Positions 1 to 30,112 of a stretch of 33,619 nucleotides of DNA are shown piece by piece. Position numbers and translations under genes: made by a program. The number at the start of each line of letters is the position of its first letter. The stretch's first letter is position 1. The stretch comes from a virus, in IMG/VR virus record IMGVR_UViG_3300034061_004968, positions 1 through 33,619 of that record, one strand, 5' to 3'. The notes under the pieces are model-generated. The model did no database searches, was not told the origin of the DNA, and saw nothing but the letters and a program-made list of their open reading frames with translations.

Positions 1-261
1 ATCAAGTAAATCATAAAGATATATTCCTTCCTCTACAATTTCATTATAAACTACTTTTTTTCCCTGTAAAAGATCATCAACTTTAATTGCTGATGCTTTA
101 ATCTTTTCTTTACCGAACGAATGATTATTGGAACATTTTATTTCAGATCCATCATCAAATATTATCCAATGATAAAAAGGTTTGTATATTTTTTGAATTC
201 CAGAAAAAGATTTAAATCCAGATGGAGTTTTTACTGTAATATTTTTATTAAGTTTAAACAT
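1..261 (-). CDS. C-terminal intein fragment (IntC) of split large terminase, partial
   Basis: This is an 87-codon open frame, uninterrupted from an ATG at 261 to the window edge. It encodes the larger part of a HINT (intein splicing) domain. Visible signals are a beta-rich start, a W-I-I-F-D-D-G-S-E-I-K strand (residues 32-42), and an intein block B with S44-N-N-H47, where H47 would be the block-B histidine. The N-terminal Cys block is missing because it sits on the terminase N-fragment (855-941). The pattern closely resembles, from memory, the C-fragment of the atypical split intein AceL-TerL. By that comparison about 16 residues, including the final His-Asn and the Cys+1 of the nuclease half, lie outside the window. 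The ATG overlaps the endonuclease stop by 8 nt (ATGTTTAA), suggesting translational coupling. No strong ribosome site is visible. Inferred role: associates with the 29-residue IntN and splices the two terminase halves in trans. Confidence 0.85.
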   Translation of the reverse strand, partial: MFKLNKNITVKTPSGFKSFSGIQKIYKPFYHWIIFDDGSEIKCSNNHSFGKEKIKASAIKVDDLLQGKKVVYNEIVEEGIYLYDLLD

Positions 262-823
262 TTGCCCAACACTCTTTTAAAATAATTCTCTTTATTCCCT
301 GTGGCGTTAAATTATAGTTTTCTGCATATTTCTTACAAAATGCTTGAAGATATGATAATTCCTTTCCATTTTTCATAATCATACCAACATTTTGCAAGTC
401 TGGTTTTTCATTATATAGTTTTCTTAATTCTTTTATTTGTTCATCATTAATTTTTCTAGTAAAAACTTTACCTTTTCTAGATTCAATCATTTTTTCTATA
501 GTTTCTTCAGAAAAGCAATTTTTTATTCCTTTGTTCCAAGGAATATTACCTTTTTTTACCCCACCAACTCCCTTCCTTTCATAATTATCAAATCCTTCGC
601 CGCCTGTAGATTTATTCCATCCATTTTTAAAAGTATCAAATTTTTCTATGTAAAAAATTTCTGCTTCTTTTGCTTTTTCTGAAATATCTATCTGCTCACT
701 TATTTCAAAAATATGTGGAGGTTTATTTCTCATATGCTCTCTTTTTCTAGCATCTAAATTTTGAGTTTGTCCAACATATTTGACATTTCCATTTAAGTCT
801 TTAAGAAAGTAAATATAATACAT
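254..823 (-). CDS. GIY-YIG homing endonuclease, free-standing, in the intein break
   Basis: A 189-aa GIY-YIG family endonuclease. The N-terminus carries Y3-I-Y and Y16-V-G (the two namesake motifs), R26 and H30 in A-R-K-R-E-H, a likely catalytic Glu at E55 and an Asn at N70 followed by S-T-G-G-E-G. These match the order of key residues in I-TevI-type enzymes. Residues about 92-120 (G-N-I-P-W-N-K-G-I ... S-R-K-G-K) look like a NUMOD3-type DNA-binding motif. The last 60 residues are helical and could form a helix-turn-helix. The gene lies exactly between the two halves of a split terminase intein, in a third reading frame, 28 nt after the N-half stop and overlapping the C-half start. A perfect late promoter box lies 9 nt before its ATG, with no Shine-Dalgarno sequence. 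Expected role: cutting intein-free terminase alleles to spread the element. Its target site is not visible here. Confidence 0.9.
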   Translation of the reverse strand: MYYIYFLKDLNGNVKYVGQTQNLDARKREHMRNKPPHIFEISEQIDISEKAKEAEIFYIEKFDTFKNGWNKSTGGEGFDNYERKGVGGVKKGNIPWNKGIKNCFSEETIEKMIESRKGKVFTRKINDEQIKELRKLYNEKPDLQNVGMIMKNGKELSYLQAFCKKYAENYNLTPQGIKRIILKECWANV

Positions 824-832
824 TTTTTTAAT

Positions 833-840
833 TATTTATA
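833..840 (-). promoter_or_regulatory. T4-type late promoter box (TATAAATA)
   Basis: An exact TATAAATA on the minus strand, in the 28-nt gap between the terminase N-half stop and the endonuclease ATG. In T4, transcription starts about 5-7 nt past this box, which would leave a leader of only a few nucleotides before the ATG at 823. It would drive the endonuclease and the downstream IntC-terminase nuclease gene independently of the N-half. Confidence 0.75.
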
Positions 841-851
841 ATCCAAAAAAC

Positions 852-1733
852 TTACATTCGTTCATATAAATCTTCCATAGAAATTTTTTGAGGAATATCA
901 TCTGCATCTAAAATTTCTATGGTTGTATCTCCACTTAAACACTCAAACTCAACTTTAAACTGTTGATCTGAAGTGTTTGCAATAGTTTGTTTTTTCCACT
1001 CTTCGTCTCTTCCAGGAACTTCACTCCAATGAACGTCTGTAAAAACATATTCATTCTTACCCTTTTCGGCATCATGCCACATTCGGTAGAAGTGATTCAT
1101 ACCGTGAGGCGTAGAAACTATAATAACTTTTGTTTGCTTACCTGAAGTAATAGTGGGATAAACAGATGCAAAGAATGAATCTGCAATATGATTTGGAACG
1201 AATGCAAATTCGTCCAAGAATAGAATGTTAAAAGACATTCCTCGAACAGCAGATGCAGAAGTGGATGCCGCTAAAATCTTTGAACCATTCTCAAGTTCTA
1301 GAGAACCTTTGTTCCAAGATATGATACCTTGTTGCATCCACTTTGGTAGATTCTCATAAGCAGTCTGAAGACGGTCTAGAAGTTCTCTAGCAGTTGCTGC
1401 TTTGTTTGCAAGAATACCAATATTTACGTTATCGTTGAAAACTGCATAATGCAATAAAAAAGACACCACAGTTGTAGACTTACCAGTCTGTCGTGGCATC
1501 TTACATATATTAAATCTATGATTATGAAAGTTATTGATTAACTTTTCTTGGAAATGATATGGTTTAAAATTTTGTAGTCCATGATCAAGGGTTACAATTT
1601 TTACATAATTATTTGCAAAATAAACTGGATCATCTTTACACTTAACAAACTCAAGAATTTGTTCTTGAGTAAATTCAATAGGAGTATTTGCTTTTTTTAG
1701 TAACGGATTGCCAAGATAGACATCATTTGACAT
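852..1733 (-). CDS. gp17: Large terminase (gp17-like) ATPase half fused to split-intein N-fragment
   Basis: The first 264 residues are the ATPase half of a T4-like packaging motor (T4 gp17 is 610 aa). Walker A is M79-P-R-Q-T-G-K85-S; Walker B is I-L-F-L-D174-E175; the coupling motif is V-S-T-P-H-G at 206-211. The sequence then leaves the family at V-E-F-E | C265 and continues with C-L-S-G-D-T-T-I-E-I and S-M-E-D-L-Y-E-R-M before a TAA. This is an intein block A with its nucleophilic Cys1. The break falls near the ATPase/nuclease boundary, so the nuclease half must come from a separate gene beyond position 1. A GAGG Shine-Dalgarno precedes the ATG, and the gene starts 17 nt after the upstream stop. 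The truncation is not decay: both motifs and the intein fragment are intact. Role: powers DNA packaging into proheads with gp16, once spliced. Confidence 0.92.
   Translation of the reverse strand: MSNDVYLGNPLLKKANTPIEFTQEQILEFVKCKDDPVYFANNYVKIVTLDHGLQNFKPYHFQEKLINNFHNHRFNICKMPRQTGKSTTVVSFLLHYAVFNDNVNIGILANKAATARELLDRLQTAYENLPKWMQQGIISWNKGSLELENGSKILAASTSASAVRGMSFNILFLDEFAFVPNHIADSFFASVYPTITSGKQTKVIIVSTPHGMNHFYRMWHDAEKGKNEYVFTDVHWSEVPGRDEEWKKQTIANTSDQQFKVEFECLSGDTTIEILDADDIPQKISMEDLYERM
855..941 (-). other. Intein N-fragment (IntN), 29 residues
   Basis: Codons for C265 to M293 of the terminase N-half. They begin with the splicing nucleophile Cys and the C-L-S-G-D-T block-A pattern, and end with the amphipathic I-S-M-E-D-L-Y-E-R-M. 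Most natural split inteins break after block B, giving N-fragments near 100 residues. This one breaks right after block A, as in the AceL-TerL type (about 25 residues). An acidic D-A-D-D stretch sits in the middle. Confidence 0.85.
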
Positions 1734-17608: not shown

Positions 17609-17616
17609 TATTTATA
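17609..17616 (-). promoter_or_regulatory. T4-type late promoter box (TATAAATA)
   Basis: An exact TATAAATA on the minus strand, in the 32-nt gap between the giant gene's stop and gp8. It would give a leader of about 12 nt before the gp8 ATG. Confidence 0.75.
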
Positions 17617-17623
17617 GACATTA

Positions 17624-20600
17624 TTAAACACTTGTGGAATACCCAACGTATCTCAGTGGATTGAGTCTTTGAATCATAGGAGAAGTTAAAATACCAGAAA
17701 TTCCAGTATTATATGAAACAAAATTGAGTGGTTTCTTCCTCACTGGAGTGTTTATTTTACCCCAACTAAATTCTCCATAAAATCCACTATATCCAGTTCC
17801 AGATAATCCATTATAACTCAGAACACTGACAACAACTCTAGAAACATTTGTTACTCCAATTCCAGGAACACTTGTTTGTGCTATAGAAACTGAAGCAACT
17901 TTATAGATATTATCCAAGCAAGTTGTTCCTACCCCAACAACAGATAAAGATGAATCTAAAGATGTAATACCAAAACCAATGTTTGAATTAAATACTGTAA
18001 AGTAATAATCAGTTTTTATTCCACTTATGCCCGTTGTTGCAATTCCAACATTAATGTTTGGGTTTCTTAGATAAGAATCAGTAGGAATAAACAAATCAAA
18101 AACTATTGCAGTGGATGCAATACCAACTGAAGTTGTAGAAATTCCAACTATTGTTCCAAAATCACCTTCATAGGTAACCTCTTCAATTTTTTCCTGTTTT
18201 AATGATGGATATTCGATGAGAACTTGCGGTGGATTATTAGTAGTGTAACCAGATCCGGGGTTAGTAATAGTAAAGGAAGTTACAATGCCAGAAGTAATTG
18301 ATGCTGTTGCTGTTGCTGTAGTTACAACACCTACTGTTTTTGCAATTACTACTGACGGCGCAGTTGTAAATCCTAATCCGCCATTATTAAGAGAAAGTGA
18401 TGATATTGTTCCTGCCGCGGACACAATGGCAGTAGCTGATGCCCCAACTAGATTGTCTTGTGATGTTATAGTTATTTTTGTTTTAAATGGAATAGTTGAA
18501 TTTTCTCTCAAGTCATCAAAAAATACTTTAACACTTTGTACAAATATCTCAGTAGATGCTATTCCAACAGTTCTAATAATATTTGTTGTTGGATGTATAA
18601 ATGGTTCGTATAATTCTCTACTCTTACCAACTTCTTGTCCGCTGATAATTTTATCTTCAGTTTGTCTACACCAAATTAGAGGTCTTGATAAAGTTTCATC
18701 GAGAGTTAAACCAACACCTGAATATGGGTTAGTTTCAATAGAATCTGATGAAATAACTTGCGTGACAAGTCTTTCTTCTTCTTTTAAGAAGAATCTATCA
18801 TCGTTCAGTCTTATATCGTCTCCAATTTTTAAAGATTCCAAAATATCAACAAAAACAACATCAACTTGTTCGGTTCCTTTATAAAATAATATTTTGCAAG
18901 TATCGCCCTCTTTGGGGGCCTCGGGGAATGTAATAGTACTTCCCCCATTAAATAAATATCCATCACCCGGAACTTGCAAAATATCATTAACAAATATCAA
19001 AAGAACAGATTGAATATCAATATTTGATCCTGCTCTTGATCTAATGGTTGTTTGCACTCCATTAATTTTTATTGGGAAAGTTCTTCTTTTTCCGTTGAAT
19101 AAATTTTCTATTTTATCAATAACTTGGAAATCTCCAACAGACCAGGATGAGAACAAGTCAGAGAATACTTCGTCAATTGTTAGTTCAAATTTTCTAAAAG
19201 GTTTTGAAGAATCTGTTGGAATTCCAATTAATCCTCCAGTTTGAACTGTTAGAACATCCGATGTTTTATATGCAAATCCAGTATTTTTTATTTCAAAATC
19301 AATTACACTAGATCCTTGTCCAACTACAATGTTAACAGTTGCTCCAGTTCCTATTCCTGACGTTCCGGAAGAATAAACTAAAGGAATGTTGTAATAATTT
19401 TCTGGACTATCAATTATTACTATTGGTGGATTGGAAGATGTATATCCAGATCCGGGATTGGTTATAATTACATCTTTAGAAATACGTCCAGAAGAAACAG
19501 TGGTAAACCCAACGAACTGATAATTCAATGTTCCAGAAACACTAGACGTTTTGACTCCAACGTTTACAATTCCAGTTGTTGGCGAATCTAAGGTTATCAA
19601 AACAGAAGTTCCTGCTTCTATTGCTTGGGAAGATGTACTTCCAGATCCAATAAGAACATATGTACTTCCTGAACCTACGATTGTAACATCTTGAAAAGCA
19701 GAACCTATTCCAAGTTTATTTAAACTTGAATGTTGTAACTTAGCAAAAACTCCATTTTGGTTATCAATCGGTATAATAGTAGATCCTGCTGCAATTGCTA
19801 CGGAAGTTTGAGTAATAATTTCATATTTTGATGCTCCTCTATATCCAGATCCCGTCGATCCTATACTAATTAATGAAATAGTCCCTGCAACAGAGACTAT
19901 TGACGTTCCTCCCGCAGAGATTAGCGGTTGATATCCAAATCCTTGAGTGGATGCAACAGAAACAATTACCCCTCCTCTAGGAATACTTGACGTGTTGATA
20001 TCATACGAAGTAGATGATATATTACCAATAAATGATAAAGTTGTAATGCCAGAATTTTCTGACATTTTATAATTTCCTGGAATGGTAATAGTGCCAAGTC
20101 TTTGGGGTTCTTGGAATATATTGTTAATTAATAGTATTATCGATCCTGTTGATACTCCAATAACATCAGATTTATTTGATTTTAGAATAAATTCGGTATT
20201 AATTCCAGTAAATCTCTCAGATAACCCATCAAAAATGTAGTTTCTACTGTAAGGTTCATATGATTCATTTTCTACTCCCGATCTCAAGAAAACTCTTCCG
20301 CTGAAAGTAGAATGTGTTGTTATTCCTGTATAATCTCTATCGTCGGGTCTATTTGTCATTGTTCCTATTGGGGAATTTCCATAAGGAGCTTCAACAAAGT
20401 GTATTGTATTGTCTATAATATTATAGTTGCCAGTTACTTTTGTTACTGTAGACCCTATTGAATGATTTTCTGGCGTTGTTCCCATCCAACCACGATCAAC
20501 TAAAAATACATTTGTACTTCCAAAACCAACAACATTAACTTTTACTATTTCATTATTAATTTTTAATAAATCTCCGCCATAAATTGAACTTATACCCGAT

Positions 20601-23600
20601 AAAGTGAGATTGATTTCATTGAAATTGGAAGTTTTTGCCAGTGATACTGATGTTAAAGTTGATACAATTGGTGATTGTATATGATTATCAATTGCAATTA
20701 AACATTTAGAATTTTGTTTTTTGGCGGTAAGAAAATGAGTAGTTCCTATACCAACAGAAGTAATAGTTAAGGTTTGTGGAATAGATTTTAGTGCATCTTC
20801 CACTGAAGATGCAAATCTAATGTTTAAATCATTTAGTTTGACAGCATAAACTGAGGATGGTAACTTATCTGTTACTCCTATTCCAGAAATTGTTGTTGTT
20901 GCAATTCCTATAGGACTTCCATTGCCGGAGTTATAAATTAGTTCTTCCCCTGTTACATAAAAATGGTTAGGAATTTTGACTAAATTATCTGCAACATTTA
21001 CAATTAAGTTATTTGAAGCATCAAAAACTCTTTGGAATATTGGATTTTGTTTGTTTTTGAGATCAAAAGACTTTTTAACTTTGTTTAATGTACCTTGATA
21101 TTCGGAATATGATGAATCCAAACTCGCATTTGTAAATCCATAAAATTCTAAAGAATTTCCAGAATCAACGATTCTCATGGAGTGTTGATATACCTTAACA
21201 TTTACCGAAATATTTGGATTTGGCGTAAAATAAAGATTTGTTCCGGTTGAACCAACGCCAGCACCAATAGTCCCCAAACCAGAAATAGTTTCTAAAGAAC
21301 CAAATTCAACTGCATATGCATTAGTTTCATCATCAATAACAACTATTTCTGAAGATTGATAAGAATTATTTGCAGTATCTTCAACCATCACAAGATAGTA
21401 TGCACTCGAATAATCTTGAGAATAATTTGATATAACTGTTTGACTTGGTGTTGGTGATGATGATATTGCAACATAATTTGATCTAATATCACCAGTATTA
21501 AATGTTATGGATCCAGTTGTAATGCCTGATCCAGAAGTATTTGCCAATGAAACTCTGAGAGTATTTACAGTGTATGTAATACCTAACCCAACATTAGGAA
21601 TAAAATCGAGATTTATATTGGAACCGGAAATGTATGCAGTATAAGTTCCAATTCCATCTCCAATGTATTTAACTCTATTTAAATTAGATAATTTTCCATA
21701 TTCTAATATATGGACATTTGTTCCATCATTAAGCAAAGTTATTTCATCAAATTGGAAATATTTTCCATCACTAGGTTCAAATTGGACAAGTATTTTTGAT
21801 GCTCTATGAGTTGATGCAATACTAACAATTGTCGTTTGTGAGGTTGTTCCAGAGGGAACTATTGCAGTTGAAGATTTGAGTTCGACTAAATTTCCTAAAG
21901 AGGTATTTCCAACACCCAAAGAATTTTTATATATTCCATAAGACATCACACTAACATCATAATCGTTAATAAAGTAAGATGATGGGAAAAACTTTAAAGT
22001 TCCTTCAGATCCAAAAATTGAAAAATCAAAAGAACCGAGGTCACCACCAGTTTCAACTTTAGAATATTCTGATATATAACTTTCCAATCCATCTTGTAAA
22101 ATTGAAACCAGAGAAATTTGCCTTAGTCCGGTAAATCTTTTATCTCTAACAAAAGTTATATATTTTTTAAATCTAAAATCTGCCAGCCTAAACGTATCTG
22201 CATTTGCATAATTATTAATTCCTGGTAAATTTGAAAATTGATCACTTATATCATCAATCATCAAAACTTTATTTCCGATTGACTGCAACTCATCTTGTAA
22301 AGATACGGAGTTAAAGATTATTTCTTTTGAATAATAGATTGAGTCAATTTCTATCGTTTTTTCTCTAGCAAGATCAAAATCATTTACACAGTTTAAATCA
22401 ATTTCCCTTACCAAATCAGAAACTGCAGAGAAATCTCCATCATTTTGAGATGTTGCTATTCCAACAAACTGTGAATCTATTGACTCTATTGTGAGATCTC
22501 CAAATTTTTTAAATCCTGTTGTATGATTTAAATTACCTATAGATTCATTCCAAGTTTCATAATCAACCTTTGATTTAATAGAATATGAAAAGTTTTGATA
22601 ATAATTATTATCCGAAGTTACTTGGAACTGATTATTTAAAAATCCAGTTTCTCTATTCCATCCCTTCCTAACAATAGACGAAGATCCAACTGTATAAATT
22701 GCGTTCACATCTTCAACCTCTACTATAGAACCTTTTGCTTTTGAAGTTTCTCCTATAATCTGAGAATTTATTTGGAATGAATTTGTGGTAGATATTTTTA
22801 ACTGCTCAGTATATTCATTCCAATTCAATACCGTTCCCATAAAAGAATCACTTTTCACCTTTTCGCCAACAATAAATCTTCCCTTTTCCAATAACGTATT
22901 GAATATTGGGAAATATTTTTCCGGTACTACTATTCCGGCAGAATTTTCAGAATCAAAAGATCCAGGAGACTCAGATCCAGTTAAATAATCAGACAAATTA
23001 TATACTATCGTTGCACCAGAAGCGCCGTACTGAGGATTGACTGAAGTTAAAGTGAATAATTTATAATTATAATTTTTAGAATTATATCCTTTAGAAGTTG
23101 TCGCGGAACCAACACTAGTACTCTCAATTAAAACTTTGTCGCCAACATTAAATGGAAATACTTGACCAAAACTGTAATTTACGCCCAATTGTACTGTAAC
23201 ATTTTTAGTTACACTATTAAATGTGATATTACTTATTGGAACCCCATTAGAATTATTTGTTGGAATAATTATTGGAGTTACACTGTTTATTCCTTCGGTA
23301 TTTCTAACAATACTTACGGTTTTTGTTTTAATATCATATGATAAATCAACATCACTAACAATCTTATTCGTATATCCATCAATTACAACTAAAGTGGGGG
23401 ATATCGTGTAGTTTACTCCGACTGAAGAAACTCCTACAGACTTAAATATGGATAATGGATTAATCTTTAATACTTGAGGAAGTTTTGCTGATGGTCTTAA
23501 TGTTATATCTGATGGATACTCAAATCCAATATCCTCAATTTCCACATTGTTTATATTGCCAATAGAAATTGTTATTGGATCTAAAATTGCATTTTTACCA

Positions 23601-26600
23601 TTCTTCGAAAAAACAGTCGTTACACCCGGAGAAGTTTCGTAATATGATCCAGATGATTTCAATTCTATTCTTTGAATTGTTCCGGAAACATTTCTAGAAT
23701 TAGTGTAATATTGAAAATCGCCATCAGCATTTGTATAAGATAAACTTTCCGGATAACCTAAAATGTTGAATTTAAAGGTTGTTTGTCCAACTCCACTAAT
23801 AGTGTAATTTCCTGTATAAAAACTTCTTGTCAAAGAAAGTTTATTATTATCCAAAATATTTTCATTGTCGTTTATAATTTCTTTTTTGACTGCATAATTA
23901 TCAGTTAAATTAATTGGAATCAGTGCGTAATATAAATCAAAATTAATATTTGAAGTAGAAAGTCTAACATAAGAAGTGGAATCAACTCCCACTTTTCCAA
24001 TTCTTACTACATCAAACATCGAAGAATCTTCTGCTTTGACAAATTCTTCAGTTAAATTTGAATTGGTATACAATTTAAAATCAAATGCTGGATATAAAAC
24101 AGATCCCTTAGCAAAAGATAATGATTTATCAGACAAATCAAAGTTTACTATTTGATTTGGAATTATTGAAATAATTGGATTGACTAAAGAAATTGATCCA
24201 TCAAAGGTTGAGGTAAAATCAATTGTCTCTGGAATATCTTTGATTGCGTTGTAGTAAGTAGAAGATAATTTTATTTTATCTTTGTTAAATTTAACGACAT
24301 AATAAATTTCATCATTGGTCAACCCACCACCTACTCCACTTATAGAATTATAAATTACCTTCTGTCCGGTAAAATAACCATGATTAGCAACTAATATTGT
24401 ATTATTTGCAATGTCAATATCACCAGAAACAAAATTCTTTGGATTTACAATTAATCGTCTATTGTTATCATTATACTTTATTACTACAGTAGTTGTGATA
24501 CCGGGCAAAGATTCAAAATATACTATGTCATTATTTTTTAATCCATGTGTTGTTGCGGTTGATACTGTGACAGTGTTTCTATTAAATTCTCCAATCAAAA
24601 CATTATCATAGTCTGTTTTAAAACTATGATTTAAACCAGATCCAACACTAGTGAAATAAAGTGTCGAAAATACTACATTGCTATTAATTCCAACGAAAGA
24701 TCCGGTTGATCCCAAACCAACTTTATTTGTGGAAATGCCTATCAGATCATCGGATACTTTTGCAACATAAACATACTGATTATCCACTAATTGGAAAGAA
24801 GTTATGCCATCATTAGAAACAGATATTGGCGAATCGCCATTGCTAGAGTAAATTAATTTCTCTCCGGTGTTTAGCGAATGTGAAGGTAAGTATATTGTTT
24901 TTGTTGGGATAAAAATACTCGTAACTCCAGATCCTGGATTTGAGAAGTTTAAAGTATGCCCAATTCCAACTCCAGAAGAGGATCCAATTGCAAGAGATTC
25001 TGCTGGACTAAAGTAAAATTCTTTGTTTAGGTTGAAAACTACATTAGTGGTTCCCGGAGAATCAAAAGTAAATTTTCTAGTTTGTTCATATAAAACAGTG
25101 GAAGCAGTGTGAGATGATCCAACTGTTGAATCATATGCCCTTAATACTTTAATCCTCGAAGATGGTGTGTCAACAGAAAGAACTTTTACCTTCTCATTTT
25201 CGATGAGATATACATCATTTTCTCTTATACTTGGGTAATTTAAAGAACCGTTTACATTAAAATATGTAATAATTCCGGTAGCAGTTGTTGTTCCAACAGT
25301 ATTCAGAAGAGAAAGTGTGTCTGTTCTAACACCAACTTGATAAAATCTATCAAAAAGTTTTGATAAAGTGTTTATTCCAGAGATTGAAATTATGTCATTG
25401 TTAATAAGACTGTGTGGAGTAGAGCAGAAACCAATATATTTTCCTACATTATCAATGGGATAAAATTCAACATTGGGAGAAAAAGTAGAAGCAAAACTTA
25501 CTGTTTTTACCTCTTTTCCTTTTACATAAGATACTTGAGCATATGCATTGGATCCATTTGTCTTCAAATTATTGAATACTATATTGTCTCCAACCTTATA
25601 ATCATTTCCACCAGTAGTAATACCAATATCATTTATTCCGCCAGTTAAAATTGATTTTATTCTTGATGACGATTCTTTTATTTTTGTTGGATTTAATACA
25701 AATTCATATTCTGAATTTTTGCTAGTAAACTTATATGGAGTAGTATTGCGAATTAAATTTTCTGTAACAAAATCAAAACTATCTTGGGTAACTCTTGTAT
25801 AATTAAACTGATTAGGTGATGATTTAAAAGTGTTTCCAATCAAATATGGAAAAACTGGTTTCTTGTAATTTTTAAATACCCCAGTGGTTTCAGTTGATCC
25901 ATTATTAATAGTTGCAAAATATGCATAAATTCCATTTGGAAATTCTGGAGTTACGCAAAATCTTCCATTGTGCTCGTCCAAATCTCCAGAATTATTAAAC
26001 TGATAATCCTCTACAAAAAATCCTTCCGGATAAATTTTTTGTCCTAATTGTGAAACTGGATCTGGTCTTTCAGAAGAAATTTGCGACACATATCCAGAAA
26101 TCATTTCTCTCACATTTCCTCCAGATGGATTTGAATATCCATATGGACCATAGATCGGATTTCCATCATAAGCCCAACCAATAATTGGGGAATGAACATT
26201 AGATACTACTTCTCTATTTCCCGACAATGTGAGGTCTGGTACAAAAGTTTGGTTTCCTTTAACATAATCAATACCAAAAACACTTCTCCTTAATTTTCTT
26301 GGAGCATACAAATGACAATATTGTGCCCCAATCATTGTAAATGGAGAAATGTCTATGATACCATCATCGTCAGAAATACTGTTTGTAATTAAGTGTTTTT
26401 CTACTTTATTGATTGTCCAAGATTTTACTTTACAATACGACTTAAAATTTCTTCCCGAAGAAACAACTTCCAACAAAGTTCCTGCAGTACTAAATCCAAC
26501 TCCTCCATTTACAATTTTAACATCTACTATTTTTCCCCCACCAATTACTGGAGTTAATATTGCTGCAGTCCCTATTCCTAAGGTATTGATTGTTGGAGCA

Positions 26601-29600
26601 GACGTATAATTGCTACCGCCATTTAGAACCAATACTTGTTTTATTTTTCCATTATTTACAATAGCAGAAAGTTGTGCCTCAGATCCTATACCTAAAGTAA
26701 CTTTTGGTTGTCTTTCATAATTTATAATTTCCGAAGATCCATATCCGACTCCAAAATTACTTACAAATACATTGGTAATAGATCCTCTAAAAACTGGTTG
26801 CAAAATTGCATTAAAGTTTTGATTTGTTAATGTAGAAACACCTATTCTTCCAGAAACTGAAACAACAATTTCTGGATAATTAAATGTATGTAAGGATGAA
26901 CCGATTGAAGTTAAATTAACATATTGATTTGTTTTAAAATAAAAATCCCTATTAGTGGTAGCAATTCCTACTTGAGATAGTTTGAATTGATCCTCATTTA
27001 CTTTAGTTACAAAATATGATGTTCCACTAGATAATCCGCCAACCACTGTTCCAGTTGGATTATAAACTATTACTTCTCCGGTATTGTATCCGTGATTTGG
27101 TATATCGATACTATTATATGCAGTATTGATTCCTGATGAGGTACATACTATTTTTTTATTTTTGTAACCAAAACCCCTGTTCAGGACACTAACACTAGAG
27201 ATCTTCCTCTTTGGAGAGAAAGATTCAAACAAATGAACTCCAACTCCATATGAAGTTAGATTTATTGTGTTAATTCCAGAGACTGCATCATCCAATGTTT
27301 TATGCAATTTAACATTAAATGCATCTTGTACATTGACATAATATTGAGCATTTGTGGTAATTCCACCAACACTAGTTTGACCTTCAGTTAAATATACTAC
27401 TCTCTCATAGTCTCTAAATTTATGATAAGATGAAAAACCTAAGGTGTCATTGGTTAAATTAACAAGACCCGCAGATTCTATTGAGTTGAAAGAAACTTGA
27501 TGTTTGAAAGTTGTTAAATTTGGTTTTGCATAAGCGCCTAATCCATTTCCACCTGTTATTGTTATAATTGGTTCATCTAAGTAGTCAAATCCACCATCAA
27601 CAACGTCTATTCTTTCTAAAGACCCTTCAACATGAACTAAAGCAGTTGCATTATATCCATTTGTATCTTCTATTGAAATTGAAGGGGGATTAATTATATC
27701 ATAATCTTCTCCGCCATCTAAAACTTCAATATTTTGAATTCCACCATAATAAATCTTGTCTTCAGATTTATAACTGTAAGCTTCTACTCCATTTACCAAT
27801 AACCCAACGGGTCCAATAGGAGTATCTAAATTATCATTAATACTCTTTGGTTTAGGAGTTGTAATATTTTTTATATAAGATTGAGGCAAAAGATTAAATA
27901 CTTCAAATTTAACTTTCTTAAAGGTATTATTGACAACTGATCCAGAAACACTTACAAATTTATTATTATAGAGATCTGATCTACTATTTGCAAGTTTTAT
28001 TTTTGTTTCATCTATTTTCTTGACATAGTATGTCTTAGAAAGAATATTCAGAGAATTCTCTACTTCAAAACTATTTTTTACATATATAACTGAATCACCA
28101 GTATATAATCCATGTAAATTATTTGGATTTCCAGAACTCAAATCTAAAGTTTCTCCGTTAAAAGTTCCAGAAAAAACAATATCGGTTGATTTAATATCAA
28201 TATTTTCTCCAAGATAATCCGGAATGCAGTTTGATGCTACATAAATGTTATTTTCATCCTTCAAGTAAACATTTTGAACGTTTGGAATGTATTCATTTAA
28301 TGCTGTAAAATTGGTAAAACTTGGTTTTTTAATATTTCTTTCTATAGAATATTTTAAATTAATATTATCAATTTTTGGTCCTTCTACACTAATAGAATTT
28401 GCATTGTTTATTTTTGCGACTTTATAACTTGATTTCACATTACTTGACGAAATTAAAGTAATAGAATCTCCCAAATTTATATTATGGGCATCATATGTAA
28501 TAAGTTCATATGAAAATAAATTTAAAGTCGTATTTGACGAATTTGGACCATTAACTTCTTTCAGATTATACTTATTAGAAATATTAAATATCCAATTATT
28601 TGCTAACTTCCCTGATGCCTCATATCCCAAAGTTACTGTTTTTATTGGATCACCTTTAGACATTAAATAATTTAAATCCGGAAAAGAAATATCAGAAAGA
28701 ACGCCGGTTATTCTTACTTTTATTGTAGTATTTCCAGTATTTGCATATGCATAAACATCATTTAATTTTAAATCAGTTCCGGATGGAATAATTAAATTAC
28801 AAGGAGATGTTAAATTAAACTGTGTTAGATTTTTTGAAGTATAATCAAAAGTATAATCTACGCCATTTACATTTAATAATAATTTTCCATTAGGAGGAAA
28901 TCCAATTGTTGAATCGACATCTAATAAAGTACTGGATAAAGAACTTTGGGTAGTTAATTTTGTTGATGGATGAATGGAGAAACTCCCATATACCGATCCA
29001 TCTACAAGTAAATCTTTATTATAATCACTATCTAGACTTAAAACATAATATGTTTTATTTTGCCTGACAATTTTTTCTATTTTTGTAATAGTACCATAAG
29101 ATTTAGGGAAAAAATTATCTACACTGGCATCCTGATACAGTGTTTTATTTTCAAGATCCATTGGATCTCCTGAAATAGATTCAACTACTAAATCTCTTGT
29201 TATTCTATATTGAGCATCTGATGGTCTTAAAAGAAAATCTCTTGGTTTTATTACATCAACCGTTTCTCCAAAAAGAGATTTAAACAATATCTTATATGAA
29301 TCATCAGTTCCTTTTGAACTATAAAAATCTCTTGCTTGCTTTATGAAGGTTTTTTCATTCAGTCCTTCAGTAAATTCTCTGTTTTCAAATCCAGGAATTA
29401 ATTGTCTTTTTATTTTTGTAAGAAATTCCTTTAAGAACAAAGAACTTAAATTTTCAACTTTGGCATTGCTGGAATGCGTAGAAATACCTGAGGTGGAAAA
29501 CACCAACTGATCTGGATTATTTTCTGATCTATAAGAAGTGATTCCACTAAATCCTCTAGTACAATCAACAAAAGATGTTGTAGTTTTATTCTTATACAAT

Positions 29601-30112
29601 ATAATTTCAGAGTCTATTTTGATTATTCCATTAGACTCTGGGAATCCATACGTGGATGATACATCAATAGTACTATCTACAAAATCAACATTGCTAGATA
29701 AAAAAGTTGAAGATGGTGTTTGTATTGCAAACTCCAAAACATCAGTAGTTGATGCTGTGGTTGTTAAAAATACTGACGTTCCATCTGTAGCAAAATAATC
29801 TACATTTCGATTTAACTTTACGCCATTTTTATATACAATAAGATTCTCAATAGAATAACCACCACTAACAATAAAATATGATTGTGGTGCTTGTGGTTTA
29901 ACAGTAACAGTTCTACTGAATAAAGATTCTGCTAGATTATCAATTTTCACATATTGATCTATATTCTGAAGAATATCTAAAGTTCCACTTTTTCCTTCTA
30001 ATGAATTATAGTATTCTTTTAAAAATTCACTTACGAGAGGATATTCTTCCTGCACAAAATCTGGAAGCTGATCTTGTACAATTGAACTGATTTTAACTCT
30101 TGTATTTGTCAT
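17624..30112 (-). CDS. gp7: Giant gp7-like baseplate wedge protein, 4162 aa
   Basis: It starts 1 nt after gp6. The first ~380 residues align in pattern with the C-terminal third of T4 gp7. E-Y-P-L-V-S-E-F-L-K-E-Y-Y (23-35) has a T4 equivalent. A-R-D-F-Y-S-S-K-G-T-D-D-S-Y-K-I-L-F-K (about 257-280) matches T4's S-Y-D-F-Y-S-T-K-G-I-E-A-S-Y-K-F-L-F-K. L-E-N-K-T-L-Y matches the following L-V-G-Q-T-I-Y. T4 gp7 is 1032 aa; here about 3,700 residues of repeated beta modules follow: GG-x-GY repeats, HGY-x-TG repeats and 'E-I ... RG' modules. A YHYH-type domain lies at about 1265-1425 (G-W-A-Y-D-G-N-P-I-Y-G-P-Y-G, N-G-R-F-C-V-T-P-E-F-P-N-G). The end contains G-E-F-S-W-G-K-I. One open frame, no stops. 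gp7 is the wedge scaffold in T4, and the order gp6-gp7-gp8 agrees. Confidence 0.85.
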   Translation of the reverse strand: MTNTRVKISSIVQDQLPDFVQEEYPLVSEFLKEYYNSLEGKSGTLDILQNIDQYVKIDNLAESLFSRTVTVKPQAPQSYFIVSGGYSIENLIVYKNGVKLNRNVDYFATDGTSVFLTTTASTTDVLEFAIQTPSSTFLSSNVDFVDSTIDVSSTYGFPESNGIIKIDSEIILYKNKTTTSFVDCTRGFSGITSYRSENNPDQLVFSTSGISTHSSNAKVENLSSLFLKEFLTKIKRQLIPGFENREFTEGLNEKTFIKQARDFYSSKGTDDSYKILFKSLFGETVDVIKPRDFLLRPSDAQYRITRDLVVESISGDPMDLENKTLYQDASVDNFFPKSYGTITKIEKIVRQNKTYYVLSLDSDYNKDLLVDGSVYGSFSIHPSTKLTTQSSLSSTLLDVDSTIGFPPNGKLLLNVNGVDYTFDYTSKNLTQFNLTSPCNLIIPSGTDLKLNDVYAYANTGNTTIKVRITGVLSDISFPDLNYLMSKGDPIKTVTLGYEASGKLANNWIFNISNKYNLKEVNGPNSSNTTLNLFSYELITYDAHNINLGDSITLISSSNVKSSYKVAKINNANSISVEGPKIDNINLKYSIERNIKKPSFTNFTALNEYIPNVQNVYLKDENNIYVASNCIPDYLGENIDIKSTDIVFSGTFNGETLDLSSGNPNNLHGLYTGDSVIYVKNSFEVENSLNILSKTYYVKKIDETKIKLANSRSDLYNNKFVSVSGSVVNNTFKKVKFEVFNLLPQSYIKNITTPKPKSINDNLDTPIGPVGLLVNGVEAYSYKSEDKIYYGGIQNIEVLDGGEDYDIINPPSISIEDTNGYNATALVHVEGSLERIDVVDGGFDYLDEPIITITGGNGLGAYAKPNLTTFKHQVSFNSIESAGLVNLTNDTLGFSSYHKFRDYERVVYLTEGQTSVGGITTNAQYYVNVQDAFNVKLHKTLDDAVSGINTINLTSYGVGVHLFESFSPKRKISSVSVLNRGFGYKNKKIVCTSSGINTAYNSIDIPNHGYNTGEVIVYNPTGTVVGGLSSGTSYFVTKVNEDQFKLSQVGIATTNRDFYFKTNQYVNLTSIGSSLHTFNYPEIVVSVSGRIGVSTLTNQNFNAILQPVFRGSITNVFVSNFGVGYGSSEIINYERQPKVTLGIGSEAQLSAIVNNGKIKQVLVLNGGSNYTSAPTINTLGIGTAAILTPVIGGGKIVDVKIVNGGVGFSTAGTLLEVVSSGRNFKSYCKVKSWTINKVEKHLITNSISDDDGIIDISPFTMIGAQYCHLYAPRKLRRSVFGIDYVKGNQTFVPDLTLSGNREVVSNVHSPIIGWAYDGNPIYGPYGYSNPSGGNVREMISGYVSQISSERPDPVSQLGQKIYPEGFFVEDYQFNNSGDLDEHNGRFCVTPEFPNGIYAYFATINNGSTETTGVFKNYKKPVFPYLIGNTFKSSPNQFNYTRVTQDSFDFVTENLIRNTTPYKFTSKNSEYEFVLNPTKIKESSSRIKSILTGGINDIGITTGGNDYKVGDNIVFNNLKTNGSNAYAQVSYVKGKEVKTVSFASTFSPNVEFYPIDNVGKYIGFCSTPHSLINNDIISISGINTLSKLFDRFYQVGVRTDTLSLLNTVGTTTATGIITYFNVNGSLNYPSIRENDVYLIENEKVKVLSVDTPSSRIKVLRAYDSTVGSSHTASTVLYEQTRKFTFDSPGTTNVVFNLNKEFYFSPAESLAIGSSSGVGIGHTLNFSNPGSGVTSIFIPTKTIYLPSHSLNTGEKLIYSSNGDSPISVSNDGITSFQLVDNQYVYVAKVSDDLIGISTNKVGLGSTGSFVGINSNVVFSTLYFTSVGSGLNHSFKTDYDNVLIGEFNRNTVTVSTATTHGLKNNDIVYFESLPGITTTVVIKYNDNNRRLIVNPKNFVSGDIDIANNTILVANHGYFTGQKVIYNSISGVGGGLTNDEIYYVVKFNKDKIKLSSTYYNAIKDIPETIDFTSTFDGSISLVNPIISIIPNQIVNFDLSDKSLSFAKGSVLYPAFDFKLYTNSNLTEEFVKAEDSSMFDVVRIGKVGVDSTSYVRLSTSNINFDLYYALIPINLTDNYAVKKEIINDNENILDNNKLSLTRSFYTGNYTISGVGQTTFKFNILGYPESLSYTNADGDFQYYTNSRNVSGTIQRIELKSSGSYYETSPGVTTVFSKNGKNAILDPITISIGNINNVEIEDIGFEYPSDITLRPSAKLPQVLKINPLSIFKSVGVSSVGVNYTISPTLVVIDGYTNKIVSDVDLSYDIKTKTVSIVRNTEGINSVTPIIIPTNNSNGVPISNITFNSVTKNVTVQLGVNYSFGQVFPFNVGDKVLIESTSVGSATTSKGYNSKNYNYKLFTLTSVNPQYGASGATIVYNLSDYLTGSESPGSFDSENSAGIVVPEKYFPIFNTLLEKGRFIVGEKVKSDSFMGTVLNWNEYTEQLKISTTNSFQINSQIIGETSKAKGSIVEVEDVNAIYTVGSSSIVRKGWNRETGFLNNQFQVTSDNNYYQNFSYSIKSKVDYETWNESIGNLNHTTGFKKFGDLTIESIDSQFVGIATSQNDGDFSAVSDLVREIDLNCVNDFDLAREKTIEIDSIYYSKEIIFNSVSLQDELQSIGNKVLMIDDISDQFSNLPGINNYANADTFRLADFRFKKYITFVRDKRFTGLRQISLVSILQDGLESYISEYSKVETGGDLGSFDFSIFGSEGTLKFFPSSYFINDYDVSVMSYGIYKNSLGVGNTSLGNLVELKSSTAIVPSGTTSQTTIVSIASTHRASKILVQFEPSDGKYFQFDEITLLNDGTNVHILEYGKLSNLNRVKYIGDGIGTYTAYISGSNINLDFIPNVGLGITYTVNTLRVSLANTSGSGITTGSITFNTGDIRSNYVAISSSPTPSQTVISNYSQDYSSAYYLVMVEDTANNSYQSSEIVVIDDETNAYAVEFGSLETISGLGTIGAGVGSTGTNLYFTPNPNISVNVKVYQHSMRIVDSGNSLEFYGFTNASLDSSYSEYQGTLNKVKKSFDLKNKQNPIFQRVFDASNNLIVNVADNLVKIPNHFYVTGEELIYNSGNGSPIGIATTTISGIGVTDKLPSSVYAVKLNDLNIRFASSVEDALKSIPQTLTITSVGIGTTHFLTAKKQNSKCLIAIDNHIQSPIVSTLTSVSLAKTSNFNEINLTLSGISSIYGGDLLKINNEIVKVNVVGFGSTNVFLVDRGWMGTTPENHSIGSTVTKVTGNYNIIDNTIHFVEAPYGNSPIGTMTNRPDDRDYTGITTHSTFSGRVFLRSGVENESYEPYSRNYIFDGLSERFTGINTEFILKSNKSDVIGVSTGSIILLINNIFQEPQRLGTITIPGNYKMSENSGITTLSFIGNISSTSYDINTSSIPRGGVIVSVASTQGFGYQPLISAGGTSIVSVAGTISLISIGSTGSGYRGASKYEIITQTSVAIAAGSTIIPIDNQNGVFAKLQHSSLNKLGIGSAFQDVTIVGSGSTYVLIGSGSTSSQAIEAGTSVLITLDSPTTGIVNVGVKTSSVSGTLNYQFVGFTTVSSGRISKDVIITNPGSGYTSSNPPIVIIDSPENYYNIPLVYSSGTSGIGTGATVNIVVGQGSSVIDFEIKNTGFAYKTSDVLTVQTGGLIGIPTDSSKPFRKFELTIDEVFSDLFSSWSVGDFQVIDKIENLFNGKRRTFPIKINGVQTTIRSRAGSNIDIQSVLLIFVNDILQVPGDGYLFNGGSTITFPEAPKEGDTCKILFYKGTEQVDVVFVDILESLKIGDDIRLNDDRFFLKEEERLVTQVISSDSIETNPYSGVGLTLDETLSRPLIWCRQTEDKIISGQEVGKSRELYEPFIHPTTNIIRTVGIASTEIFVQSVKVFFDDLRENSTIPFKTKITITSQDNLVGASATAIVSAAGTISSLSLNNGGLGFTTAPSVVIAKTVGVVTTATATASITSGIVTSFTITNPGSGYTTNNPPQVLIEYPSLKQEKIEEVTYEGDFGTIVGISTTSVGIASTAIVFDLFIPTDSYLRNPNINVGIATTGISGIKTDYYFTVFNSNIGFGITSLDSSLSVVGVGTTCLDNIYKVASVSIAQTSVPGIGVTNVSRVVVSVLSYNGLSGTGYSGFYGEFSWGKINTPVRKKPLNFVSYNTGISGILTSPMIQRLNPLRYVGYSTSV
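25845..26325 (-). other. YHYH-type domain within the giant gp7-like protein
   Basis: Codes residues about 1265-1425. G1312-W-A-Y-D-G-N-P-I-Y-G-P-Y-G-Y, then G-D-L-D-E-H-N-G-R-F-C-V-T-P-E-F-P-N-G-I-Y-A-Y-F, then F-P-Y-L-I-G match the order of motifs in the YHYH family. The namesake Y-H-Y-H string is not evident; the nearest is Y1265-C-H-L-Y. The domain function is unknown to me. Confidence 0.75.

What the first reader, a model, noticed from the sequence alone, without database searches (positions are those of the whole stretch)
254..940. GIY-YIG endonuclease nested in the intein break behind its own perfect late promoter
The endonuclease sits at the exact break point of the split intein, with a TATAAATA box in the 28-nt gap before it. 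This resembles the late-promoter control of the T4 td-intron enzyme I-TevI, also GIY-YIG, but here in a fractured-gene setting. It may have moved an endonuclease out of an intein, or invaded the intein and so created the split.
Basis: partly seen in the sequence, partly recalled or inferred. Interest (0 to 1): 0.75.

Follow-up and report, generated by a model that had tools for sequence, protein, structure and literature searches.

The report
Self-regulated homing nuclease inside split terminase
A marine virus has its DNA-packaging gene cut in two by a protein-splicing element with a DNA-cutting gene in the gap, and the start of that cutter gene carries a look-alike of the cutter's presumed target over its own late promoter, a layout that suggests the parasite limits itself as one in phage T4 does.

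Summary
Confirmed and extended. On the minus strand the large-terminase gene (gp17) stops inside an atypically split intein. A 189-aa GIY-YIG endonuclease follows after 28 nt, and the C-intein ORF overlaps its end by 8 nt. TATAAATA in the gap is kept in 56 of 58 distinct loci whose nuclease proteins are as little as about 64% identical. NATAAATA is the late-promoter motif of this phage group. Mobility is recent: the nuclease is 98.9% identical in DNA to that of a phage whose terminase is only about 82% identical, while the closest intein-free terminase differs only within 244 nt of the insertion point, a co-conversion tract. Unexpectedly, the gap plus the N-intein tail is a near-copy of the uninterrupted terminase homing site running into the promoter. 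This matches the published I-TevI operator layout (15/20 identity, overlapping a late promoter), so I infer autorepression; it is not shown. Relatives at the same site carry an HNH instead of a GIY-YIG domain on the same DNA-binding module, and contigs that lost the nuclease stay split. Fractured genes, this intein family and a GIY-YIG gp17 case (PX29) were known. The operator-like copy and catalytic swap were not found in my searches.

The parts
852..1733 (-). Terminase large subunit (gp17) N-extein fused to the N-intein fragment; stop codon 852-854
   Evidence: Terminase_6N E 1e-24; PHROG terminase E 2e-68
855..941 (-). N-intein fragment, 29 aa, Cys1, atypical N-terminal split
   Evidence: known family by its partner's match to 6DSL
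833..859 (-). Conserved element GAATGTAAGTTTTTTGGATTATAAATA: near-copy of the empty gp17 homing site running into the late-promoter box (putative operator)
   Evidence: in near-identical L002 (L003 carries the same element) the match to its own site is 13 of 17 nt, and a higher-scoring match elsewhere in TerL exists for that locus
833..840 (-). T4-type late promoter box TATAAATA
254..823 (-). GIY-YIG homing endonuclease gene, 189 aa, N-terminal catalytic domain and C-terminal NUMOD3-like/DNA-binding module
   Evidence: (NUMOD3 below its cut-off)
254..261 (-). 8-nt overlap ATGTTTAA of the nuclease stop with the C-intein start codon; an SD-like AAAAGAG lies in the nuclease's last codons just upstream (AAGGAG in many relatives)
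1..261 (-). C-intein fragment (87 of about 103 aa; the contig ends here; the gp17 C-extein is outside the window)

Best explanation
It is a mobile composite element in a T4-like (cyanophage-type) gp17: an atypically split intein whose break holds a homing endonuclease gene with its own control region. gp17 is made as two proteins that the split intein joins (inferred from the known family). The nuclease cuts intein-free gp17 alleles at the insertion site, and repair copies intein plus nuclease across with about 180-250 nt of flank (the transfer tracts are shown; the cutting is inferred). A late sigma-type box drives the nuclease late (conserved motif; start site not mapped). The DNA-binding module that recognises the homing site probably also binds the partial copy of that site over the promoter and shuts the gene off, as I-TevI does (inferred). 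The C-intein half is translated from an SD in the nuclease's tail, next to the nuclease stop codon (sequence shown, coupling inferred).
For: Break and ORFs. Of the 80 contigs kept (127 matched), 74 carry the nuclease, 2 end inside its tail and 4 lack it. Empty sites: 78 of 79 new loci sampled by terminase similarity and 7 of 7 isolates read. Tree of 139 distinct terminase stretches (55 split, 84 empty): at least 20 state changes. Co-conversion: window vs L137 (empty), all 16 differences in 534 nt of N-extein within 244 nt of the insertion point, P 3e-6; L063 vs L172, all 33 within 178 nt, P 2e-17 (pairs picked for high identity far from the site). Nuclease DNA 98.9% and C-intein 99.2% to L003, whose terminase is about 82%. 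Selection: median dN/dS 0.20 over 231 pairs. Promoter. Homing-site copy: the junction is the best or tied-best match in all of gp17 for 32 of 55 distinct gap regions against 3 of 163 random stretches; L348 19/19, L351 24/29. The copy matches its own target better than others': 16.2 vs 14.3 of 22 in 14 lineages, 0 of 20000 shuffles. The element has nearly invariant columns against 0.66 mean at fourfold sites of the nuclease. Same module with an HNH domain at the same site: L241 (44% over 101 aa, HNH_3 E 2e-11), 17 of 54 module-bearing loci. Fold: I-TevI catalytic domain is the top PDB hit.
Against: 23 of 55 gap regions match another place in gp17 better than the junction, among them L002, whose element is the window's. 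The match is only about 14-19 nt in many loci. Three lineages (L310, L317, L358) show no clear copy, and L306, L308, L241 lack the TATAAATA box. In-frame fused nucleases (VP-1, K469, 1.244.A, PX29) show neither box nor copy. The tracking test used 14 lineages chosen because a copy was visible and is not corrected for relatedness. At the 16 sites where the window differs from L137, intein-bearing loci do not match the window clearly more than empty ones (6.6 vs 6.2 of 16), so no donor was identified. The box-to-ATG distance of 9 nt implies a near-leaderless mRNA without an SD. RNA folding of the start region is no better than many shuffles (39 of 200). The best Foldseek E-value is only 0.017. 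No binding, cleavage, splicing or transcription data exist.
Confidence: 0.68

Rival explanations
1. The homing-site copy is a scar of the nuclease's arrival (a duplicated target edge) and is kept only because it carries or abuts the promoter and the N-intein stop codon; the nuclease does not bind it.
For: The copy supplies the stop codon that ends the N-intein in most lineages (TGA of TGTGAG, TAG of CTTAGG, or TAA of the box). Within the close clade the element is fixed while target wobble positions vary.
Against: Columns upstream of the box that are neither promoter nor N-intein coding (GTTTTTTGG) are mostly invariant; the copy follows the phage's own target, including a Thr codon in L319 and L321 and CDF in L355; several HNH relatives with the same module keep it too.
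Confidence: 0.3
2. The late promoter mainly serves the downstream C-intein/gp17 C-half, giving extra late transcript of the second half of the packaging motor; nuclease expression is a by-product.
For: The nuclease start has no SD and a 9-nt box-to-ATG distance, whereas other window genes have 17-41 nt; the C-intein start has its own SD.
Against: All 3 nuclease-less types (L027, L074/L077, L078) lost the box together with the nuclease and still keep the split gene; some standalone nucleases behind a box have a proper SD (L239, L313).
Confidence: 0.2
3. The box is fortuitous in AT-rich DNA and the nuclease is read only from the gp17 operon transcript.
For: TATAAATA is expected about 7 times by chance in this window.
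Against: Kept in 56 of 58 distinct loci; in the window and in 49 kb of S-SM2 the motif sits upstream of gene starts on the coding strand.
Confidence: 0.06
4. The nuclease is a dead passenger, and the cassette moves only by ordinary recombination between phages.
For: One of 54 distinct nuclease proteins has an internal stop (L033); some contigs lost the gene.
Against: dN/dS 0.20; residues recalled as the GIY-YIG core are invariant in 14 aligned relatives; two transfer tracts are confined to the insertion point.
Confidence: 0.07

Closest known systems
Fractured genes (Dassa et al. 2009, gkp095; recalled and seen only as a citation, paper not held)
   Same: A phage enzyme gene interrupted by a split intein with a free-standing endonuclease gene between the halves
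   Different: Recalled nucleases there are mostly Vsr-like; here GIY-YIG (or HNH) at gp17, an atypical split, and a promoter plus homing-site-like element between the parts
AceL-TerL / GOS-TerL / Cat atypical split inteins (PMC11766414 passages; PDB 6DSL)
   Same: TerL intein with short N-fragment (25-37 aa) and about 104-aa C-fragment; C-intein matches Cat at E 3e-56
   Different: The passages I read describe the splicing protein; the nuclease gene in the break and its control are not described in them
I-TevI of the T4 td intron (PMC2988022 passages)
   Same: GIY-YIG nuclease behind a late promoter overlapped by a sequence 15/20 like its homing site
   Different: Group I intron instead of split intein; autorepression demonstrated there, only inferred here
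Aeromonas phage PX29 gp17A/17B (GU396103)
   Same: gp17 split by an intein with a GIY-YIG nuclease at the same terminase site, annotated as such by its authors
   Different: Nuclease is fused to the C-intein, is of another GIY-YIG type (only a NUMOD3 match), and has neither late box nor site copy
Vibrio phages VP-1, K469, 1.244.A gp17
   Same: Same terminase site and a nuclease homologous over 169 columns
   Different: Nuclease fused in frame to the N-intein, no own promoter found

Membership tests
Fractured gene with split intein and nuclease | Host gene halves each fused to an intein fragment, nuclease ORF between them | tested here: met
Fractured gene with split intein and nuclease | Protein trans-splicing restores the enzyme | not testable with these tools
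   Cys1, SHN/Cys+1 and an intact C-extein in L003 allow it
Atypical TerL split intein (AceL/GOS/Cat) | Short N-fragment, C-fragment homologous to Cat, inserted in TerL | tested here: met
GIY-YIG homing endonuclease | GIY-YIG domain above the curated cut-off | tested here: met
   30.1 bits vs 22.6; I-TevI is the top PDB fold hit
GIY-YIG homing endonuclease | Site-specific cleavage of the intein-free allele | not testable with these tools
   indirect: co-conversion tracts
T4-type late promoter | NATAAATA upstream of late genes on the coding strand | tested here: met
T4-type late promoter | Mapped late 5' end | not testable with these tools
   no RNA data
I-TevI-type autorepressor | Homing-site-like operator overlapping the nuclease promoter | tested here: met
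   met for the family; weak for the window's own element taken alone (13 of 17 nt in L002, which carries it)
I-TevI-type autorepressor | Nuclease binds operator and represses | not testable with these tools
   experiment needed
I-TevI-type autorepressor | RBS sequestered in transcripts from upstream promoters | tested here: inconclusive
   window start codon falls in a predicted stem, but 39 of 200 shuffles fold as well; no SD present

The most novel reading that the evidence does not exclude
Split-intein homing nucleases of gp17 carry a portable control cassette made from their own target: a partial homing-site copy that terminates the N-intein, overlaps a late promoter and acts as an autorepression operator. 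It tracks the phage's own target sequence and stays in place while the catalytic domain is exchanged between GIY-YIG and HNH. This would be an I-TevI-like circuit arising in inteins, and it would mean that the operator-bearing cassette itself created the intein split.
Probability: 0.5. Interest if true: 0.8.

Novelty: new variant of a known kind. Interest (0 to 1): 0.64.

Why it matters
It gives a directly testable account of how a selfish nuclease can live inside an essential packaging gene: late, self-limited expression and a split host protein rejoined by splicing. It links two separately studied phenomena, fractured genes and nuclease autorepression, offers a natural series of states (empty, split with nuclease, split after nuclease loss, fused on either side), and shows that a DNA-targeting module is kept while the cutting domain is swapped. 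Parts of this could serve work on atypical split inteins, which are used for protein labelling.

Tried and rejected
Rejected: a contiguous-intein ancestor at this exact site among close relatives. L074, L077 and L078, first suspected to be contiguous, are split with a stop codon; the contiguous mini-intein seen (VmeM-32) is at another gp17 site. Rejected: promoter support from composition. Weak or empty: RNA hairpin control (L312 15 and L358 19 of 200 shuffles as good, so only suggestive); phage collection for the nuclease (no match); bacterial genomes (one distant hit, 30% over about 108 aa, no terminase beside it); PDB by sequence (only UvrC, E 0.08); homing-site copy next to fused nucleases (none); identification of a transfer donor. 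Faults in my own runs: the anchoring kept only 3 rows (redone); the first 20-mer test was replaced; the split/empty labels printed are wrong (all read 'split'); NEX1 bins for L002/L003 are out of register and not used; one search printed the N-intein one codon late, the coordinates given here (855-941) follow from the ORF and the joint. Rows left out: L001 (the window again) and L220 (VP-1) from the close-clade counts, the window (no C-extein), L308, L310, L317, L358 from the tracking test. Searches returned at most 80 loci (80 of 127, 80 of 175, 80 of 87, 80 of 600 or more), so frequencies are of those. Counts are by locus, not contig; one search is by contig. Papers: PMC2988022, PMC2984593, PMC11766414, PMC10448857, PMC3943268 passages only; PMC2988020 searched, no passage found; the others search listings. 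Dassa 2009 and the primary papers on AceL-TerL and related inteins are recalled only. 'Not found in my searches' rests, which cover open-licence papers only.

Full report
WHAT IS THERE. The window is a 33,619-bp virus record. Read on the minus strand, ORF 852-1733 is the N-part of a T4-type terminase large subunit ending in 29 residues of intein; ORF 254-823 is a GIY-YIG protein; ORF 1-261 is the start of the other intein fragment, cut by the contig end. The near-identical locus L003 has the complete C-intein (103 aa, ending SHN) followed by Cys and the gp17 C-extein. That C-intein matches the engineered consensus 'CatC' in PDB 6DSL at E 3e-56, so the intein is a member of the known atypical TerL split family (short N-fragment; passages of PMC11766414). 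The nuclease lies exactly in the break, 28 nt after the first stop, and its stop overlaps the C-intein ATG by 8 nt; an SD-like stretch (AAAAGAG here, AAGGAG in many relatives) lies in the nuclease's last codons. The nuclease itself has no SD.

HOW COMMON. Of 80 IMG/VR contigs kept for the C-intein (127 matched), 74 carry the nuclease, 2 stop inside its tail at the contig end, 4 lack it. By contrast 78 of 79 new loci sampled by terminase similarity, and 7 of 7 isolates read, have an uninterrupted site. The nuclease has no match in 50,697 phage records.

NUCLEASE LOSS. L027 keeps the last 14 nuclease codons with the SD and the overlap; L074/L077 and L078 keep only a stop, a few bases and the next ATG. 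In all, the terminase stays in two parts, so the split outlives the nuclease. The late box is lost together with the nuclease.

MOBILITY. In a tree of 139 distinct terminase stretches (55 split, 84 empty) presence changes at least 20 times. The window's nuclease is 98.9% and its C-intein 99.2% identical in DNA to L003, whose terminase N-extein is only about 82%. Its closest terminase is the intein-free L137: all 16 differences over 534 nt lie within 244 nt of the insertion point; further differences appear only beyond about 636 nt. L063 and empty L172 repeat this: all 33 differences within 178 nt upstream, none in the rest of the N-extein compared. Such tracts are what double-strand-break repair leaves. 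The pair L119/L185 shows no such sharp edge, and no donor could be named: at the 16 sites intein-bearing loci match the window 6.6 times, empty ones 6.2. The gene is under purifying selection (median dN/dS 0.20 over 231 pairs; C-intein 0.083, terminase 0.073).

PROMOTER. TATAAATA is not enriched by count (2 vs 7.07 expected), but as NATAAATA it lies 8:1 on the coding strand, 7 of 8 within 80 nt upstream of gene starts. In 49 kb of S-SM2, 13 of 18 coding-strand sites lie within 80 nt upstream of a start, including gp8, gp13, gp18, gp20 and gp22, and the other strand has none. NATAAATA is the published cyanophage late promoter (PMC2984593 passage). In the gap it is present in 57 of 58 distinct loci. 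The box-to-ATG distance is 9 nt here and 8-13 in nearly all relatives, shorter than at the other window genes (17-41), implying a near-leaderless message (start position relative to the box is recalled, not from a call).

HOMING-SITE COPY. The consensus of 58 loci is GAATGTGAGTTTTTTGGATTATAAATA. Its first 19 bases resemble the joined gp17 site (codons for E-C-E-F-L-G). Scanning each gap region against its own joined gp17 on both strands, the junction is best or tied best for 32 of 55 distinct regions, against 3 of 163 random stretches; where the copy is seen the register is nearly constant. For 23 of 55 another place scores higher, L002 among them, which carries the window's element; its own match is 13 of 17 nt. 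The strongest cases are L348 (19/19), L351 (24/29), L031 and L119. Where the terminase has Thr instead of Cys at +1 (L319, L321), so does the copy. In 14 deep lineages with a visible copy the match to the own target is 16.2 of 22, to shuffled targets 14.3 (0 of 20000; not corrected for relatedness, and chosen for having a copy). L310, L317 and L358 show none. The stop codon that ends the N-intein is supplied by this copy or by the box in most lineages. PMC2988022 (passages) reports the same layout for I-TevI: 15/20 identity to the homing site over its late promoter, equal binding, about 100-fold less cutting, autorepression. I infer the same here. A scar without function remains the main rival.

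MODULES. The nuclease is homologous over 169 columns to the nuclease fused in frame to the N-intein in Vibrio phages VP-1, K469 and 1.244.A. At the same site, L241 and relatives have an HNH_3 domain joined to the same C-terminal module (44% over 101 aa). Of 54 loci with at least 80 aa of the module among 82 examined, 53 have the terminase beside them, 34 are GIY-YIG, 17 HNH, 3 unassigned. So the targeting module stays with the site while the cutter is exchanged. Fold prediction gives pLDDT 71 overall and about 80-92 over the first 70 residues; the I-TevI catalytic domain is the top PDB hit, E 0.017.

KNOWN AND NEW. Known: fractured genes (recalled; paper not held), this intein family, and a GIY-YIG nuclease in split gp17, annotated in PX29. 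New as far as eight literature searches go: the operator-like copy over a conserved late promoter in a split intein, the GIY-YIG/HNH exchange on one module at one site, and nuclease-less derivatives that stay split. Origin by invasion or by escape is not settled.

Noticed in passing
L003, L007, L037 and others, between the NEX1 and NEX2 parts of gp17: A second, contiguous intein at the P-loop of the same gene (27 of 93 split-intein loci, 0 of 89 without; by locus). The window lacks it.
   Followed up: partly
L225 (phiS), L233 (kaaroe), L238 (Thanatos-2), L230 (HY03), L232 (PspYZU05): Another gp17 site (next to CAFI) has the same kind of split intein with a TnsA/endonuclease-I-like nuclease, fused to the N-intein or standalone; L226 has a contiguous mini-intein there.
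   Followed up: partly
L224 (Campylobacter phage CP21) 621-4907: gp17 fractured at a third site with a T5orf172/GIY-YIG nuclease ORF between the parts and an unannotated C-intein.
   Followed up: no
L240 3935-4818: Split gp17 with a SegE-like nuclease that appears broken into two ORFs.
   Followed up: no
L239 4107-4163: A strong SD (GGAGG) can pair with CCTCC directly after the late box; a transcript starting past it would lose the anti-SD, as described for I-TevI (48 of 200 shuffles fold as well).
   Followed up: partly
L033 about 4284 (nuclease codon 96): The nuclease has an in-frame stop, a decayed copy, with the intein parts intact.
   Followed up: no
window 17624-30112: One ORF of 4162 aa on the minus strand, with the other TATAAATA (17609-17616) just after it, 17 nt before the next gene.
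   Followed up: no
L383 3001-3327: Bacteroidetes MAG contig with a distant match (30%) to the DNA-binding module and no terminase hit.
   Followed up: partly
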